Position numbers and translations under genes: made by a program
Shown here: piece by piece, positions 22,517-44,726 of the stretch
Numbering within the stretch: the stretch's first letter is position 1
How the letters are laid out: each line of letters begins with the position of its first letter
Assembly (NCBI GenBank): GCA_002733575.1
Contig: NVWB01000004.1
Location: forward strand, 1 to 64,000
Source: Blastopirellula sp.
Lineage (GTDB): Bacteria > Planctomycetota > Planctomycetia > Pirellulales > Pirellulaceae
Direction: 5' to 3'
Length of the DNA: 64,000 nucleotides
Notes under the pieces: model-generated
What the model was told of the DNA's origin: nothing
Databases searched by the model: none
The model's input: the letters and a program-made list of their open reading frames with translations, nothing else

Positions 22517-22637
22517 TATTAATTTCGTTTGCTTGAGGTTTAGTTGCAAATGGGTTTTCGAGACGGTAAGCTAATTGCTTAGCATTTTGCGGCACAGCAA
22601 CGAAAACCACGCGAATGGAGGAATAGCCGAGAGAATC

Positions 22638-23180
22638 ATGACCCGCGATAATTACGAGATACCAGCGCCGAAGCCCCAGATGATCGAATTCTATGAACAA
22701 CGCACGAAGGAGCACATTGCCAGAGTTGCCGCGAACCTGAGGTTGCTGGCGAAGGTTACGATTCACAGTGAAGAGTTGACACGGCGACAAAAGATCCATG
22801 ACGCATCCAAATTCGCGCCCGAAGAAAGAGATGCTTACGTCTGGCTAACCGAATACCATCGGTGCAGAAGGAGTGGAGAACCGTTTGATTATCCGCCAGG
22901 CGTTGAACAAGAGGTGAAGCGTGCAATTCAACACCATATGACAACAAATCGCCATCACCCACAATTCCATACAGACCCGAACGACATGACGGAAGTAGAT
23001 CTGATCGAAATGGTTTGCGACTGGACTGCAATGTCACAGGAATTCAATCAAGATGGCGGTAGTGCCCGCGGATGGGCAGACAAAACAATCGGCACACGTG
23101 TACATTTCAATGAACAGAGTTCTGAATTTATCTACCGAATGATCGAGGAACTGGACAAGCAAATTGCTGCCCAGGGATAG
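22638..23180 (+). CDS. DUF5662 family protein
   Basis: 180 residues, soluble. FYEQRTKEHIARVAANLRLL followed by IHDASKF-PEER-AY and AIQHHMTTNRHHPQ matches the DUF5662 pattern, a His/Asp-rich helical family with an HD-like look; D and H residues at KIHDASKF and QHHMTTNRHHP are plausible metal ligands. The biochemical role is unknown. The frame is open further upstream to 22575, but conserved sequence begins only after MTRDNYE, so the ATG at 22638 is chosen. Confidence 0.6.
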   Translation: MTRDNYEIPAPKPQMIEFYEQRTKEHIARVAANLRLLAKVTIHSEELTRRQKIHDASKFAPEERDAYVWLTEYHRCRRSGEPFDYPPGVEQEVKRAIQHHMTTNRHHPQFHTDPNDMTEVDLIEMVCDWTAMSQEFNQDGGSARGWADKTIGTRVHFNEQSSEFIYRMIEELDKQIAAQG

Positions 23181-23406: not shown

Positions 23407-23536
23407 AACTTTGCTTCTCCAGTCAAATCGGCTATGCTAATACAACCTTCTATCGACTTTCCTTCGCAGTGATGTTTCGAAGCATTGATGGAGCTTGGAA
23501 GTAGGAGGGACGTTTTGTAGATTGAAAGGGACTGTA

Positions 23537-24115
23537 ATGAATCGTGTTGTAAAAATTCTAGTATGCATCTTCACATTACTTGCGTTTTTTGTGATTCTAG
23601 GAGTCGCAGTCTATCTGCGAACTTCTCAAGATAGCATTCAATTCGAGTTATTGAAAGAAGTTACATTTCATATCAATCCGCAAAAACCAGATAGTTCACT
23701 AGCGGAACAAAACGAAGACCCTAGTGATCTAAATGGGTGGGTGAGTGAGTCCTATTATTCCACTGAAGATTTCTATCTCGCTAAAGTACGAATCACAAAT
23801 ACAGGAAACCGATCAATCTTCGTATATAAAGGGGTTAATGCTATGAATCGTTATTTTGATCCCGGTTTTGAAGAGAGTTTCGATGAAGTGGAGTGGGTAG
23901 AATTGCCTTCGGGACATTCTCGAATATATAATTATACTGAAGAGGATAAAAGCAATTTGCAGAATTTGCAAATTAATTATCATAAAGGTAATGAAAAAAG
24001 TAATGAAAATCGATTTAAGGCAATGAGCATGCCTGTTAAGGAAGTGGGGAAAGTGTATAAGGCTAAATCATATAAATTGATTCCTTCGCTTGATTCAATA
24101 AGCACGCCAGAGTGA
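23537..24115 (+). CDS. Membrane-anchored hypothetical protein, AT-rich
   Basis: 192 residues. One N-terminal membrane segment (about 6-27, ILVCIFTLLAFFVILGVAVY) and a soluble outer part that looks beta-rich, with NTGNRSIFVYKG reminiscent of an immunoglobulin-like fold. I do not recognise a family. The codon use is noticeably AT-richer than in the neighbours, as in the 42.7-44.4 kb genes, which may mean recent acquisition. The start ATG is preceded by GAAAGGGA; the upstream in-frame codon at 23495 is less likely. Confidence 0.6.
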   Translation: MNRVVKILVCIFTLLAFFVILGVAVYLRTSQDSIQFELLKEVTFHINPQKPDSSLAEQNEDPSDLNGWVSESYYSTEDFYLAKVRITNTGNRSIFVYKGVNAMNRYFDPGFEESFDEVEWVELPSGHSRIYNYTEEDKSNLQNLQINYHKGNEKSNENRFKAMSMPVKEVGKVYKAKSYKLIPSLDSISTPE

Positions 24116-36044: not shown

Positions 36045-36175
36045 TTTGGTCATTCGTGTAAGTCCAAAGAGAGCCAGTTATCTCAGTTTTGTTTTCAAAA
36101 AATACTGGTAAGCCCCATATAGATTGATAAACTAGAACATAAAGCTAGTTTTACAAAAATCTTTGGGGCATATTG

Positions 36176-37867
36176 ATGATCGTTTGGCACAGACTTTTTA
36201 TTCTTGCGTGGCTACTTCTTCTCTTCTCCATGAAGCACTCCTTCGCGGATGACCTTTATCCGCTAGAGCCTGCCGATACTTCAAGCCCTAGAGCGACACT
36301 CATTAGCTTTCGTGACGCCTGTGAAGAAACGTACGAGCTGTTCTTTCGAGTAGGCCGTAGTGATTTTGATGAAAGTAACTCAGCTCACATCCTGACTAAA
36401 ATCATTGACTGTCTTGATTTAAGCCAAGAACCGGAATTTAACCGAGACTACACCGGCAGAGAAGCGGCCGCTTGCTTAAAGGAAGTATTGGATCGAATCG
36501 AATACCCGGCTGATGAAGAGATTCCTGGAGCGGACGAGATACGTGACGAAAACGGAGAGATCATCATTGAAGAGTGGCGTATCCCACACACCGAAATCGT
36601 CATCGCCAGAATCGCTGAAGGACCGAAAGCAGGCTCCTATCAATTTAGTGCCAACACGGTCCGCAGAGCAACGGAATTTTATAGCAAGGTTAAACACCTT
36701 GAGCCTCTAGCCGAGTCGACGCCTGGCCTTTATCAGCATTTTCTCTCGGCGCCTAAATCTCGCTGGATGTCAGGCATCGTATATCAATTGCCAGAATGGA
36801 CTAAAAAACGTTACTATGGGCAAGCGATATGGCAGTGGGTTGGGCTAGTGACCGTAGTTGTTGTGGGACTGGTCCTTATGTTTTTCGCCCATCGAATTGG
36901 ACAAGCGAATAAAAACAAAATTGAGAAATTGGGTGTCGTGCGTTACATTCTCAATATCGCCTTTCCCATTGCAGCCATGTTGGTTCCGTTGTTGGCACGT
37001 GAGTTTATCGCAAACGATCTTTCGATCTCAGGCGCTTTGCTGGCAACCACTAAATTTTCGTGCAATGTTGTCTTTTTAATCTCACTAATAATCGTCATCT
37101 TTAGTGCCAGCAATCGCATTGCAGAAGTTATTATTTCGTCACCCGGATATCACCCCAAAGGCTTAGATGCCCAGTTGATTCGTATCGTGAGTAGGATCGG
37201 CGGCATTGTGTTGGGCACAGTGGTCTTTTTAGAAGGAGGTCAGTTTCTTGGGGTTCCACTCACTACATTGTTGGCTGGTGCTGGGGTCGGAGGTCTGGCA
37301 GTTGCGCTGGCAGCCCAAGACACGCTTAAAAATGTTTTCGGCAGCATCATGATCATTCTCGATAAACCGTATCGCGTTGGCGAGAGAATTGTAACGGGAA
37401 GTTACGATGGCGTGGTGGAAGAGATCGGTATTCGTTCCACAAAAATCCGGTTACTAACCGGGCATCTGGCCACGATCCCCAATGAAGAAATGGCCCGCAG
37501 TGACATCGAAAATGTCGGTCGCAGAACGCATGTCCGACGTGTTTCAGACATCGCGATTCGGCTTGATACTTCGCCAGAAAAAACAGAGCAAGCGGTTGAA
37601 ATTATTCGCGAGATATTAAAAGACCATGAAGGACTAAACGAAAACTTTCCACCGCGAGTTTACTTCTCACAGCTAGATCGAGATTGCTTAATGATTCGCA
37701 TGATGTACTGGTATCATCCGCCAGAATACTGGGACTATATGGCATTTTCTGAAAAGGTGAACTTACAGATCACACGCCAATTTGCCGCAGCCGGAATTGA
37801 ACTTGCCCTGCCGAGTCAAAATCTGATGCTTACCAATGAGCCAGGTCAAGAAACGCCAGGGCCTTAA
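36176..37867 (+). CDS. MscS-family mechanosensitive channel
   Basis: 563 residues. An N-terminal signal or anchor (about 1-24) and a periplasmic domain of about 190 residues precede four membrane segments (about 220-390). The pore helix is the Gly/Ala-rich LLAGAGVGGLAVALAAQDTL at about 362-381, followed by the MscS beta-domain entry IMIILDKPYRVGE and the C-terminal mixed domain. It would release solutes on hypo-osmotic shock. The ATG at 36176 is preferred to the TTG codon just before it. The large periplasmic domain is unlike the small E. coli MscS. Confidence 0.92.
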   Translation: MIVWHRLFILAWLLLLFSMKHSFADDLYPLEPADTSSPRATLISFRDACEETYELFFRVGRSDFDESNSAHILTKIIDCLDLSQEPEFNRDYTGREAAACLKEVLDRIEYPADEEIPGADEIRDENGEIIIEEWRIPHTEIVIARIAEGPKAGSYQFSANTVRRATEFYSKVKHLEPLAESTPGLYQHFLSAPKSRWMSGIVYQLPEWTKKRYYGQAIWQWVGLVTVVVVGLVLMFFAHRIGQANKNKIEKLGVVRYILNIAFPIAAMLVPLLAREFIANDLSISGALLATTKFSCNVVFLISLIIVIFSASNRIAEVIISSPGYHPKGLDAQLIRIVSRIGGIVLGTVVFLEGGQFLGVPLTTLLAGAGVGGLAVALAAQDTLKNVFGSIMIILDKPYRVGERIVTGSYDGVVEEIGIRSTKIRLLTGHLATIPNEEMARSDIENVGRRTHVRRVSDIAIRLDTSPEKTEQAVEIIREILKDHEGLNENFPPRVYFSQLDRDCLMIRMMYWYHPPEYWDYMAFSEKVNLQITRQFAAAGIELALPSQNLMLTNEPGQETPGP

Positions 37868-39552: not shown

Positions 39553-40161
39553 ATGGGTTACATGCATATGTTTTACGGTGTCGATCTTGATCGAGTACAA
39601 GCTCTGTTCGGATCAAACGACGAGGCGTTTGTGGAGGATTTCCTCAAAGCTCAGGCCGAAGAGCTTGAAGATAACGATGCTTTTTTTGAGGATGAAATTG
39701 AGGAAGGCGATTGCCCTAGCTCCGAGACCGCGCTGCGAGAGATTGTCGCTGGCAAGATTCTGCATGAAGGGAGCCCTGCTATGTATGGCTATGTGTTGAA
39801 GATCATTTGCGAACACCTGGGCGAGTCGATCATGTATGACGTGTACGCGGTGAGCGATCATCCGTACAAATCGCAGTTGGCCAGTTCAGGCCCGCCGATT
39901 GCGATTCCTGATGACCCCGCAGATTTCCCAGATATAGGGCATCTCTCGATCAAAGACATTCCGGCCGAACTCCAGAGGATTGATGCGGCTCCACAAAAAG
40001 CGAAGAAGTCGCTCGTGTTAAGTCTAATTAATTGGGCTTCCAAAGGAATGATCGCTCGACAAATGGACGATGACGAAGCGATTGAAGACATGAATGCCTA
40101 TCGCGATACGTTAAAAGAGGCCCAAAGTAAAAACCTCTCTCTGGTGTCCTTTCGACATTGA
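39553..40161 (+). CDS. Hypothetical cytosolic acidic protein
   Basis: 202 residues, no signal or membrane segment. The start MGYMHMFYGVDLDRVQALFG is reminiscent of small conserved planctomycete proteins (possibly DUF7691-like), but I cannot assign a family with confidence. The N-terminal third is very acidic (EELEDNDAFFEDEIEEGD). A clear GGAGG at 39542-39546, 6 bases before the ATG, supports it as a real gene. It converges with the next gene across 4 bases. Confidence 0.6.
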   Translation: MGYMHMFYGVDLDRVQALFGSNDEAFVEDFLKAQAEELEDNDAFFEDEIEEGDCPSSETALREIVAGKILHEGSPAMYGYVLKIICEHLGESIMYDVYAVSDHPYKSQLASSGPPIAIPDDPADFPDIGHLSIKDIPAELQRIDAAPQKAKKSLVLSLINWASKGMIARQMDDDEAIEDMNAYRDTLKEAQSKNLSLVSFRH

Positions 40162-42699: not shown

Positions 42700-43182
42700 G
42701 TGGTAAACTTCAGTTTTGGTCTGATTATTCATCCGAATTTTCTGCATCTAAAGCAATGGTCGCCGTGTGGCGATTACAGAATAAATAATCAAGTACTTAA
42801 CTTTGTGGTTGTTCGAATGTGGCTTGAAGCTTTACCTGAAAATTGTCCTTTACCTAATGCAATGGCCCCGGCAGATTTTCTTTGTTTCAGGTTAGTAACA
42901 GAAATCCAGCCAATTGTAGAGGATTATTATTCTCTCCGAGAAATATTCCCAGATAAAAAATTTAATACCTGTGAGTGTCGAGCAAGGTCACTTTCAGTAT
43001 TTAGCGAAAAATCTGATTGTGAGATAATAAATAAATTACCTGCGCACCGTAATAAACATATGGTCGCATTAAGGTTATCGCCCGACTGTGGACTTATTAA
43101 GCAAACGGGAAATAAGAAGACACACTTTTCATGGTGGGTTCAGGAATGCTTTTTAAACCACCTTGTATTTGAAGGGGTATAA
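42700..43182 (+). CDS. AT-rich module, gene 1: unknown protein
   Basis: 160 residues from the GTG at 42700; a later start (e.g. the Met before WLEALPEN) is possible. No signal or membrane segment. Five or more Cys include CECRARSLSVF, and the C-terminus has LRLSPDCGLIKQTGNKKTHF with SWW, a pattern I associate loosely with small uncharacterised bacterial proteins, not with a known enzyme. The base composition is much more AT-rich than in neighbours. Its stop is one base before the next ATG, so the two genes are surely one operon. Confidence 0.6.
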   Translation: MVNFSFGLIIHPNFLHLKQWSPCGDYRINNQVLNFVVVRMWLEALPENCPLPNAMAPADFLCFRLVTEIQPIVEDYYSLREIFPDKKFNTCECRARSLSVFSEKSDCEIINKLPAHRNKHMVALRLSPDCGLIKQTGNKKTHFSWWVQECFLNHLVFEGV

Positions 43183-43183
43183 T

Positions 43184-44359
43184 ATGGGCACTCCAATATT
43201 TCTAAAGGATATATTGTTATATTACGATACACCACAGCTCTTTGCTGCGTGTGATCTAGTTGGCACTAATTATCTCTGCATGCTCGTTGAGCAGTCTTCA
43301 GATATTGATAAATTTGCATGCGTCTCATTGTCCGAACAAAAGTTAATTCATTTTACTACTGGCAAGGTAGATCTGAGAGAGATTTTTTTATATCCAGAAA
43401 TAAAACAGTTTTTTCAACTAGATGTCTTGGATTACCAATCAAATGATTTTGAGATCGAATCATTAAGTGCCCCAGAATTCCCTCTTCATTGGTTGCCTGA
43501 AGAAGGTGTTTTAATAAATAATATTCAATCTCAATCAGAAATTATTGTCGAATCAAAACAGAAGGCGAGAACAATTGTTCACTTGAGTCTTAATCCGCCA
43601 GAATCAATAAATGAACCGCGGATAAATGCACTAACTTTATCGGATGCACTTTTGTGTTTTCAAACGATGTTGAAATATGCATATAAAAGATCAATTGCAG
43701 TTCTACCGTCCGATAAGCGTAAGCAGTTGAATGTTAACGAAAACTATCAACTTGATGTGTTTGGCTTTGCGCACGGATCGTTTAGGGTAAAAATGCAATC
43801 ACAAGCTTACCAAAATCTGCTTGGAGAGACTGAAATAATTAAAGCTCTAGAACTAGTTGATAAACTTGTTGAGAATATCGACAATCCTGAGGAGTCTTTA
43901 CAGCTTTTATTAGAGAATAAGGGACACTTTGCAAGTAGCTATATTAGATTTCTAAAACACATCGCTGATGGGAAAAGCAAGATTTCATACTCTTGGGCAT
44001 ATTCGGCTCTCGAAGAACCTCTAACTAAACAAATTACCAGTGATCAAGCGCAGCGTCTATTCGAACTATTCAATCATCAAGACGAGCTAAAAGAAGAGGA
44101 AATCGAGTTAATTGGTTTCTTTGATAAGATAGACATAAAATTGGGAAAATGGAGACTTGTTGACCAAGGGAGAGAGATCCATAACGGAGAACTTGGAGAG
44201 GTTGAAGGGTTAACCTTGCAAGGGGTTGTCATCGGCACGGAGCTTTACAAGCTCAAATGTGTAGAAAAGATATTTGAAATTCATGGTACAAGTGAAGAGA
44301 AGAAATCACTTCAAATAATTGATCTTATCCCATTAAGCCCTCAAGAAGACACCGACTAA
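43184..44359 (+). CDS. AT-rich module, gene 2: DUF6575-like protein
   Basis: 391 residues, soluble. The N-terminus (DILLYYDTPQLFAACDLVGT, then YLCMLVE and REIFLYPE) resembles DUF6575 proteins; that assignment is from memory and moderate. The rest is helical with no catalytic motif I can name. AAGGGG at 43172-43177 overlaps the end of gene 1 and stands 6 bases before the ATG, giving coupled translation. AT-rich like gene 1. A fold-back repeat begins 9 bases after the stop. Function unknown. Confidence 0.65.
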   Translation: MGTPIFLKDILLYYDTPQLFAACDLVGTNYLCMLVEQSSDIDKFACVSLSEQKLIHFTTGKVDLREIFLYPEIKQFFQLDVLDYQSNDFEIESLSAPEFPLHWLPEEGVLINNIQSQSEIIVESKQKARTIVHLSLNPPESINEPRINALTLSDALLCFQTMLKYAYKRSIAVLPSDKRKQLNVNENYQLDVFGFAHGSFRVKMQSQAYQNLLGETEIIKALELVDKLVENIDNPEESLQLLLENKGHFASSYIRFLKHIADGKSKISYSWAYSALEEPLTKQITSDQAQRLFELFNHQDELKEEEIELIGFFDKIDIKLGKWRLVDQGREIHNGELGEVEGLTLQGVVIGTELYKLKCVEKIFEIHGTSEEKKSLQIIDLIPLSPQEDTD

Positions 44360-44368
44360 AAAAATTTG

Positions 44369-44680
44369 TAGGATGGATGGTCTACAAAAAGTCGGTGTGG
44401 GATTTGATTAGATTAGCCACTAATTTATCGTTCCGTTAATAATACCCGGCGTGCAGCCATCCATCTGTCTATGCGGATTGCTTTCAATAGAGCTACCCCA
44501 TCTGATCAACCACTTGCTTGGTACTGTGCCTGGGCAATCTATCGGAGATCCGTTTGCCGAATGTGATTGAGACCGGATAAACAGATGGATGGCGGCAATG
44601 CGATTGTGATTCAATTGAACGGGTTTACTGTGGACGTTACAATCGATTGGAGAAAGTTTTGGTATAGACCATCTATCCTA
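44369..44680. repeat. 312-bp fold-back element with nested inverted repeats (MITE-like)
   Basis: Outer ends: TAGGATGGATGGTCTA at 44369-44384 pairs with 44665-44680 (15 of 16). Inner pair: GCAGCCATCCATCTGT at 44453-44468 with 44581-44596 (15 of 16), and pairing continues for a few bases inward. It fills nearly the whole gap between the AT-rich gene pair and the next gene. A 64-codon frame on its minus strand has no recognisable product. It looks like a miniature inverted-repeat element or a structured RNA. Confidence 0.65.
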
Positions 44681-44726
44681 CCAGACTAAGTTCAAAAAGT
44701 ATCTAGAAAGCAAATTCAATAGCTCA

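What the first reader, a model, noticed from the sequence alone, without database searches (positions are those of the whole stretch)
42700..44359. AT-rich two-gene module of unknown function
Two tightly coupled genes (one-base gap, ribosome site of gene 2 inside gene 1) stand out by AT-rich codon use from everything around, except the orphan at 23537. Neither shows signal, membrane segment or known catalytic motif; gene 2 looks DUF6575-like. Coupled pairs of such composition beside repeats are often mobile cargo, such as defence, toxin-immunity or regulatory pairs. This is the best candidate in the window for an undescribed system.
Basis: partly seen in the sequence, partly recalled or inferred. 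Interest (0 to 1): 0.55.

Follow-up and report, generated by a model that had tools for sequence, protein, structure and literature searches.

The report
PD-T4-10-like toxin–antitoxin defence pair
The two AT-rich genes are most likely a horizontally acquired antitoxin and toxin that make an infected bacterium shut itself down to stop a virus, a distant relative of a system tested in E. coli, and their relatives suggest that the antitoxin and its docking domain are a reusable 'safety lock' fitted to different weapons.

Summary
In detail: two genes, one base apart, with GC3 0.30 and 0.32 against 0.51 ± 0.06 for 43 other ORFs, beside a repeat. The interpretation (mobile defence or toxin-immunity pair) is largely right, but the kind is not undescribed. 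Gene 2 carries DUF6575 (E 3e-15) and matches the toxin profile PD-T4-10_B; three relatives of gene 1 match the antitoxin profile PD-T4-10_A weakly. PD-T4-10 is a validated E. coli TA/abortive-infection system with the same gene order. New here: (1) 23 of 31 DUF6575 loci found through gene 2 keep gene 1 or a remnant directly upstream, and the two co-evolve (Mantel r 0.83, 0 of 5000 shuffles); (2) DUF6575 is the constant part: alone, heading the toxin half, or once fused to a type I restriction HsdR; (3) the C-terminal half is homologous to proteins that pair with DUF6932 (PDC-M63 type). Gene 1's model resembles the ADP-ribosyltransferase fold (Z up to 7.3, tentative). Likely mechanism: gene 1 restrains gene 2 through DUF6575; infection releases the toxin. 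Toxicity, trigger and target are untested here.

The parts
42817..43182 (+). gene 1, likely antitoxin (PD-T4-10_A-like), 121 aa; longer GTG reading from 42700 possible
   Evidence: relatives start here; conserved residues kept; three relatives match PDLC04023 at 9.3e-5 to 6.4e-3
43184..44359 (+). gene 2, likely toxin, 391 aa
43184..43603 (+). N-terminal DUF6575 domain of gene 2 (about residues 1-140), proposed docking site of gene 1
   Evidence: PF20215 residues 13-140, E 3e-15; PD-T4-10_B residues 11-128, E 1.2e-4; role inferred from co-occurrence
43553..44341 (+). C-terminal half of gene 2 (about residues 124-386), proposed effector, homologous to PDC-M63B-type proteins
   Evidence: hhalign 98.4%, E 8.6e-15, 250 columns
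43171..43177 (+). possible ribosome site of gene 2 (GAAGGGG) inside the end of gene 1
   Evidence: sequence; not tested
44368..44681 (.). interspersed repeat with 17-nt inverted ends directly downstream; neighbour, perhaps not part of the module

Best explanation
The pair is a complete, horizontally acquired TA-type abortive-infection module of the PD-T4-10 kind. Gene 1 is the antitoxin and gene 2 the toxin. Gene 1's product holds gene 2 inactive by acting on its N-terminal DUF6575 domain; when a phage upsets this, the C-terminal half is released and stops growth of the infected cell. Shown here: sequence relationship, gene order and coupling, co-inheritance, domain swaps, defence contexts of some relatives. 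Shown by others for the E. coli relative: B toxic alone, neutralised by A, B needed for T4 resistance. Inferred: that these two proteins behave so, that DUF6575 is the contact, the trigger, and what the C-terminal half attacks.
For: DUF6575 E 3e-15 and PD-T4-10_B 1.2e-4 for gene 2; three gene 1 relatives match PD-T4-10_A; PD-T4-10 biology from PMC9519451. A start codon of gene 2 lies -4 to +13 nt from the stop of gene 1 in 18 of 20 pairs, choosing the nearest candidate start. Gene 1 or a remnant upstream of DUF6575 in 23 of 31 loci, in 0 of 4 loci with only the C-terminal half and in 0 of 29 control loci. Co-evolution r 0.825 over 17 loci, 0 of 5000 permutations. Contexts: DruE next to the pair in L005 and L016, DISARM in L085, type I RM in L091 and L092, type IIG RM in L099, phiPV83 beside its att region.
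Against: Gene 1 itself matches no family, PD-T4-10_A included. The PD-T4-10_B match covers only the N-terminal third of gene 2, and gene 2 relatives L003, L004, L005, L013 and L016 do not match that profile. The window copy has no recognised defence neighbour. A control with arbitrary regions was not clean. Two-gene PDC-M63AB, which shares the C-terminal half, gave no measurable defence in E. coli NILS69 (PMC12409345, passages). The pair is rare: gene 1 in 3 of 392 genomes of the phylum, own included.
Confidence: 0.72

Rival explanations
1. Sub-case of the best explanation: an enzymatic (type VII-like) antitoxin. Gene 1 is an ADP-ribosyltransferase-fold protein that inactivates gene 2 by modifying it, as MNT does with HepT (recalled). 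DUF6932, the partner of the same C-terminal half in PDC-M63, would be a second, unrelated modifying enzyme.
For: VIA-align of the gene 1 model: the twelve best rows are KptA/Tpt1, Z 7.3 to 5.6, rmsd 2.8-4.3, followed by other ADP-ribosyltransferase folds. S60 and H103 kept in 17 of 17, R25 in 13 of 16 with H twice and K once; in the model R25 lies in the first strand, S60 in the second and H103 at the start of a late strand. The swap with DUF6932 is shown for L087.
Against: Foldseek best E 0.16; only one of five AF2 models is fair (pLDDT 74.5, the others 51.8 to 32.6); Z below 8 can be a common arrangement (note). hhalign with RES and KptA profiles shows nothing, though it shows nothing for RES against KptA either. 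The third conserved residue is His, not the Glu of canonical ARTs (recalled). That DUF6932 is an enzyme is recalled or guessed, not tested.
Confidence: 0.3
2. Ordinary binding antitoxin: gene 1 blocks gene 2 by sitting on DUF6575, without chemistry (type II TA).
For: Small upstream partner, coupled genes, strict association with DUF6575; neutralisation in E. coli needs only co-expression.
Against: Nothing direct; the strictly kept polar residues S60 and H103 (17 of 17) are more than a plain binder needs, but could be structural.
Confidence: 0.4
3. A sensor-effector defence pair without TA character: gene 1 and DUF6575 sense infection, and the C-terminal half acts only then; gene 2 is not toxic alone.
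For: DUF6575 heads an HsdR in L091, where the effector is a nuclease and not a toxin in the usual sense; association with RM, DISARM and Druantia.
Against: E. coli PD-T4-10B is toxic alone and A could not be deleted.
Confidence: 0.15
4. A decaying or inert relic of a former mobile element.
For: Several relatives are broken or truncated (L004, L017, L018, L026); no defence neighbour in the window.
Against: Both window frames are open and full length against relatives, and the residues conserved in gene 1 are kept.
Confidence: 0.1

Closest known systems
PD-T4-10 (E. coli; Vassallo et al. 2022, PMC9519451; PADLOC PDLC04023/PDLC04024)
   Same: two genes, A then B, coupled; DUF6575 in B; weak profile matches of both partners' families
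   Different: match of gene 2 limited to the N-terminal third; gene 1 itself below detection; the C-terminal half is PDC-M63B-like, and whether E. coli B has that half was not testable here
PDC-M63AB (PADLOC candidate; PDLC04744, PDLC04746-04750)
   Same: homologous C-terminal half (also L003, L006, L012, L025 against PDC-M63B)
   Different: partner there is DUF6932 (L087), here gene 1; no DUF6575 there; no defence seen for PDC-M63AB in E. coli NILS69
phiPV83 orf62-orf63 (S. aureus prophage)
   Same: same order, sizes 139 and 390 aa, DUF6575 3.6e-8
   Different: no PADLOC match for either; function unknown
HEPN-MNT (HepT/MntA) type VII TA (recalled)
   Same: possible analogy: small upstream partner that may modify the toxin
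   Different: no sequence relation was looked for; analogy only
PrrC in a type I RM locus (recalled)
   Same: an extra toxin-like unit among hsd genes, as the L087 proteins lie before HsdR
   Different: no sequence relation was tested

Membership tests
PD-T4-10 | two coupled genes, A upstream of B | tested here: met
PD-T4-10 | gene 2 matches PD-T4-10_B | tested here: met
   E 1.2e-4, residues 11-128, profile 23-138 of 353; N-terminal part only
PD-T4-10 | gene 1 matches PD-T4-10_A | tested here: inconclusive
   no match for gene 1 itself at E up to 10; relatives L005 9.3e-5, L003 7e-4, L006 6.4e-3, phiPV83 none
PD-T4-10 | C-terminal half of B homologous | tested here: inconclusive
   profile positions 139-353 not matched by gene 2; E. 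coli sequence could not be fetched
PD-T4-10 | B toxic, neutralised by A, phage defence | not testable with these tools
   needs bench tests
DUF6575 (PF20215) | score over the curated cut-off | tested here: met
   56.7 bits, cut-off 26.6
PDC-M63AB | M63B-type C-terminal half | tested here: met
   hhalign 98.4% over 250 columns; no direct PDC-M63B match of gene 2 at E up to 10, and none of L087's protein at 1e-3
PDC-M63AB | upstream partner PDC-M63A / DUF6932 | tested here: not met
   gene 1 has no such match
ADP-ribosyltransferase fold (gene 1) | fold | tested here: inconclusive
   VIA Z up to 7.3, Foldseek E 0.16, hhalign without power
ADP-ribosyltransferase fold (gene 1) | R-S-E type catalytic residues (definition recalled) | tested here: not met
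   R25 and S60 present, third conserved residue is His 103; the placement is topological only
type VII toxin-antitoxin | antitoxin covalently modifies the toxin | not testable with these tools
   needs mass spectrometry

The most novel reading that the evidence does not exclude
Gene 1 plus DUF6575 is a portable safety-lock cassette: an ART-fold antitoxin and its receptor domain, grafted onto different bacterial weapons (a toxin half shared with PDC-M63, a type I restriction HsdR, an HTH-like protein) and holding each one off until infection, probably by modifying the receptor domain. The same toxin half is held elsewhere by an unrelated DUF6932 protein, so locks and weapons recombine.
Probability: 0.25. 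Interest if true: 0.78.

Novelty: new variant of a known kind. Interest (0 to 1): 0.5.

Why it matters
It extends a TA defence system, for which the one paper found tests E. coli, to distant bacteria, and splits its toxin into an exchangeable lock domain (DUF6575) and a weapon. That gives domains of unknown function a testable role, makes the unnamed phiPV83 orf62-63 a candidate defence pair, and predicts that a restriction nuclease (the HsdR fusion in L091) is kept in check by an antitoxin, which bears on how cells survive newly acquired restriction systems.

Tried and rejected
Close relatives of gene 2 by peptide patterns in genome contigs and viral contigs: none; L005's gene 2 in viral contigs: none. 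By sequence no PDB relative of gene 1's family at E up to 10, and for gene 2's family only a chance-level V-ATPase match at 0.11. Foldseek against PDB: best E 0.16 for gene 1 and 0.34 for gene 2. For gene 2 the VIA rows are mainly OB-fold-like at 304-387 and nucleotide-cyclase-like at 124-283, Z at most 5.7, on a model of pLDDT 61; I draw no mechanism from that. BFVD gave a phage DUF6575 protein (A0A8S5QA00, E 3.3e-18) and two short phage proteins at 8.6e-5 and 6.3e-4.

RNA antitoxin (type III TA): no Rfam match at gathering score in the window. Promoter-like and terminator-like sites: 9 and 1, against shuffle means of 5.9 (sd 2.3) and 1.5.

Empty site: around ten orthologues of the flanking gene 45196 the only sign of shared order beyond single paralogue-prone matches is 45196 with 46574 in L059, so no empty site could be shown.

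Defence-context control: 65 neighbour proteins (250 aa or more) of 16 loci hit 148 PADLOC families at 1e-20 or better; 96 proteins from 20 regions that I picked without plan, 19 in the genomes that carry the loci or their C-terminal-half relatives and one the first 15 kb of the window, hit 62. Only 25 families are listed for each; the control's are mostly PD-T4-6/kinase models plus mad3, and the neighbours also contain a kinase, so this is suggestive, not a clean test. Among the 16 loci I identified RM or DISARM genes in 4 (L085, L091, L092, L099); only chosen proteins of L085, L091, L092 and L099 were scanned one by one.

ART by profile-profile comparison with RES and KptA: no signal, but the pair RES-KptA, held to be ART relatives (recalled), gives none either. 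'Pns11_12' and 'PRK09071' matches are chance level.

A second HsdR fusion: none in 45 genomes of that family.

Full report
What is there. Two genes on the + strand are separated by one base. GC3 is 0.303 and 0.321 against 0.513 ± 0.061 for 43 other ORFs of the window; only the orphan 23495-24115 is alike. Downstream lies a repeat of about 314 bp with 17-nt inverted ends that has 41 other matches in this genome, all partial. The host phylum is not named by the tools; its gene content looks planctomycete to me (inference).

Identity of gene 2. Pfam DUF6575, E 3e-15, residues 13-140; PADLOC PD-T4-10_B, E 1.2e-4, residues 11-128. Among gene 2 relatives, L006, L012 and L025 (6.6e-6 to 6e-5) also match PD-T4-10_B at better than 1e-3, L028 weakly (0.0048); L003, L004, L005, L013/L014 and L016 do not. 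In the paper that describes PD-T4-10 (PMC9519451; passages, and section 8) the two ORFs overlap, B is toxic, A neutralises it, A could not be deleted, and deleting B abolished T4 resistance. The paper lists DUF6575 among domains never before reported in phage defence. It is the only paper found by full-text search for 'DUF6575' and for 'PD-T4-10' in the held library.

Identity of gene 1. No family matches it above chance. Its relatives from L003, L005 and L006 match PD-T4-10_A at 7e-4, 9.3e-5 and 6.4e-3; the phiPV83 one does not, nor does L091's at 0.01. So the link to PD-T4-10_A is transitive and weak, but it points to the same system as gene 2 does independently.

The pair elsewhere. Full pairs with a C-terminal half: L003, Oscillatoria plasmid (L005), Rhodococcus plasmid (L006), Arthrobacter plasmid (L012) and genome (L025), Nostoc (L016), phiPV83 (L013), and L093, L096, L099, L101 with a more distant C-terminal half (hhalign of their profile with gene 2's: 98.7%, 263 columns, DUF6575 included). 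L004/L085 has a truncated gene 1 frame and a weakly matching gene 2. A start codon of gene 2 lies -4 to +13 nt from gene 1's stop in 18 of 20 pairs, where I took the nearest candidate; not in L089 and L097. Co-occurrence was counted on 31 DUF6575 loci found by gene 2 queries (14, 12, L007, L008, L012, L013 from tblastn, L028); left out were the window, loci first found through gene 1 (L003-L006) and the phiPV83 copies L014, L015. Gene 1 is upstream at E below 1e-17 in 19, as a fragment or weak remnant in 4 (L007, L018, L092, L094), and not found in 8 (L008, L019, L024, L027, L028, L098, L100, L102); it is not found in 4 of 4 loci with only the C-terminal half and in 29 of 29 control loci, 355 kb. 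Cautions: the profile includes many of these sequences, and the cyanobacterial loci are close relatives. With the earlier nine-sequence profile, which held none of the loci but the window, 9 of the 14 already scored 1e-10 or better. Distances of gene 1 and DUF6575 over 17 loci correlate at r 0.825, and at 0.837 without L089 and L091; 0 of 5000 permutations reach either. The two parts are inherited as a unit.

Modularity. (a) DUF6575 alone with gene 1: L020, L022, L023 at one cyanobacterial place, and short forms in L095, L097, L103. (b) DUF6575 on a full HsdR: L091, 1137 aa, PADLOC REase_I over 121-1134 with 1441 bits, Pfam HSDR_N over 126-316, in the order hsdM, YhcG-type nuclease, an ORF that reads as hsdS (by eye), gene 1, fusion, with gene 1 overlapping the fusion by 4 nt. 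This fusion was found once; a search of 45 genomes of that family gave only itself. (c) DUF6575 with an HTH-like tail (weak, E 0.02-0.04) beside HsdM: L092. (d) The C-terminal half without DUF6575: L086-L088 and L090. In L087 the upstream gene is DUF6932 (2.2e-15) and PDC-M63A (3.5e-10), and a type I restriction subunit follows; L087's own C-terminal-half protein gave no PADLOC match at 1e-3. The match between gene 2's family and this group is 98.4%, E 8.6e-15, columns 139-401. Simplest reading: gene 1 belongs to DUF6575, not to the weapon; gene 2 of the window is a chimera of a PD-T4-10B-like front and a PDC-M63B-like back. Whether E. coli PD-T4-10B has the same back I could not test.

Context. 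DruE lies directly upstream in L005 and L016 (looked at because a helicase lay there). DISARM genes stand around L085, a type IIG enzyme by L099, type I RM genes in L091 and L092: 4 of 16 loci whose surroundings I fetched. The phiPV83 pair lies beside the att region. The window copy has no recognised defence neighbour: of nine window proteins, six of them directly flanking, only 36173-37867 gave a weak Cas3-helicase match (7e-4). A control with arbitrary regions was not clean (see Tried and rejected). The pair is rare: gene 1 in 3 of 392 genomes of the phylum, gene 1's profile in 2 of 241 of the family, one of them weak, gene 2's profile in 18 of 397 of the class, where 4 of 19 matches cover only the C-terminal half; these counts include the window's genome. 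The AT-richness is not a family trait as far as seen: L003's genome and pair look G+C-rich (by eye, not counted). That fits recent arrival from an AT-rich donor; I could not show an empty site.

Fold of gene 1. AF2 on 7 sequences: pLDDT 74.5 for the best model, 51.8 to 32.6 for the other four. VIA-align over Foldseek's candidates: the twelve best rows are KptA/Tpt1 (Z 7.3 to 5.6), followed by many other ADP-ribosyltransferase folds. S60 and H103 are kept in 17 of 17, R25 in 13 of 16 with H twice and K once. This is suggestive only: Foldseek's own E is 0.16 at best, and Z below 8 may be a common arrangement. The third conserved residue is His, so a canonical ART active site is not claimed.

Mechanism and verdict. 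Most likely a TA-type abortive-infection module: gene 1 restrains gene 2 via DUF6575, infection releases the C-terminal half. Shown: homology, order, coupling, co-inheritance, domain swaps, contexts. From the literature: neutralisation and defence in the E. coli relative. Inferred: trigger, contact and target. The negative result for PDC-M63AB in E. coli NILS69 (PMC12409345, passages) warns that the C-terminal half need not protect in every setting. I rate it a new variant of a known kind, interest 0.5; the portable-lock reading would deserve more if the tests hold.

Noticed in passing
44368-44681: Interspersed repeat of about 314 bp with 17-nt inverted ends and an inner inverted pair (44452-44476/44573-44597); 41 further partial matches in the same genome. 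MITE-like by its look; no transposase sought.
   Followed up: partly
23495-24115: AT-rich orphan of 206 aa (GC3 0.309) with no Pfam or PADLOC match; one weak tblastn match to an Ig-like-domain protein on a Pseudoalteromonas plasmid (E 3e-3).
   Followed up: partly
L091:929-9434: Type I RM operon with a YhcG-type nuclease gene, the gene 1 homologue and a DUF6575-HsdR fusion.
   Followed up: yes
L087:105-4033 and L088:2219-4140: DUF6932 gene (tested in L087, by eye in L088) and C-terminal-half protein directly before type I restriction genes: a PDC-M63AB-type pair among hsd genes.
   Followed up: partly
L013:250-1855 (phiPV83 orf62, orf63): Unnamed prophage gene pair beside the att region that is homologous to the finding; candidate prophage defence pair.
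   Followed up: partly
L020:4599-5408, L022:4599-5411, L023:4603-5411: Gene 1 plus a lone DUF6575 gene at one chromosomal place in cyanobacteria; related L019, L021 and L024 show loss or decay of gene 1. Perhaps domesticated or decaying locks.
   Followed up: partly
L028:3131-3613: Viral contig with a lone DUF6575 protein of 160 aa that ends in a hydrophobic stretch (by eye) and has no gene 1 upstream.
   Followed up: no
39553-40161 and 22575-23180: Window genes with DUF7691 (4.4e-31) and DUF5662 (7.7e-38); roles unknown.
   Followed up: no
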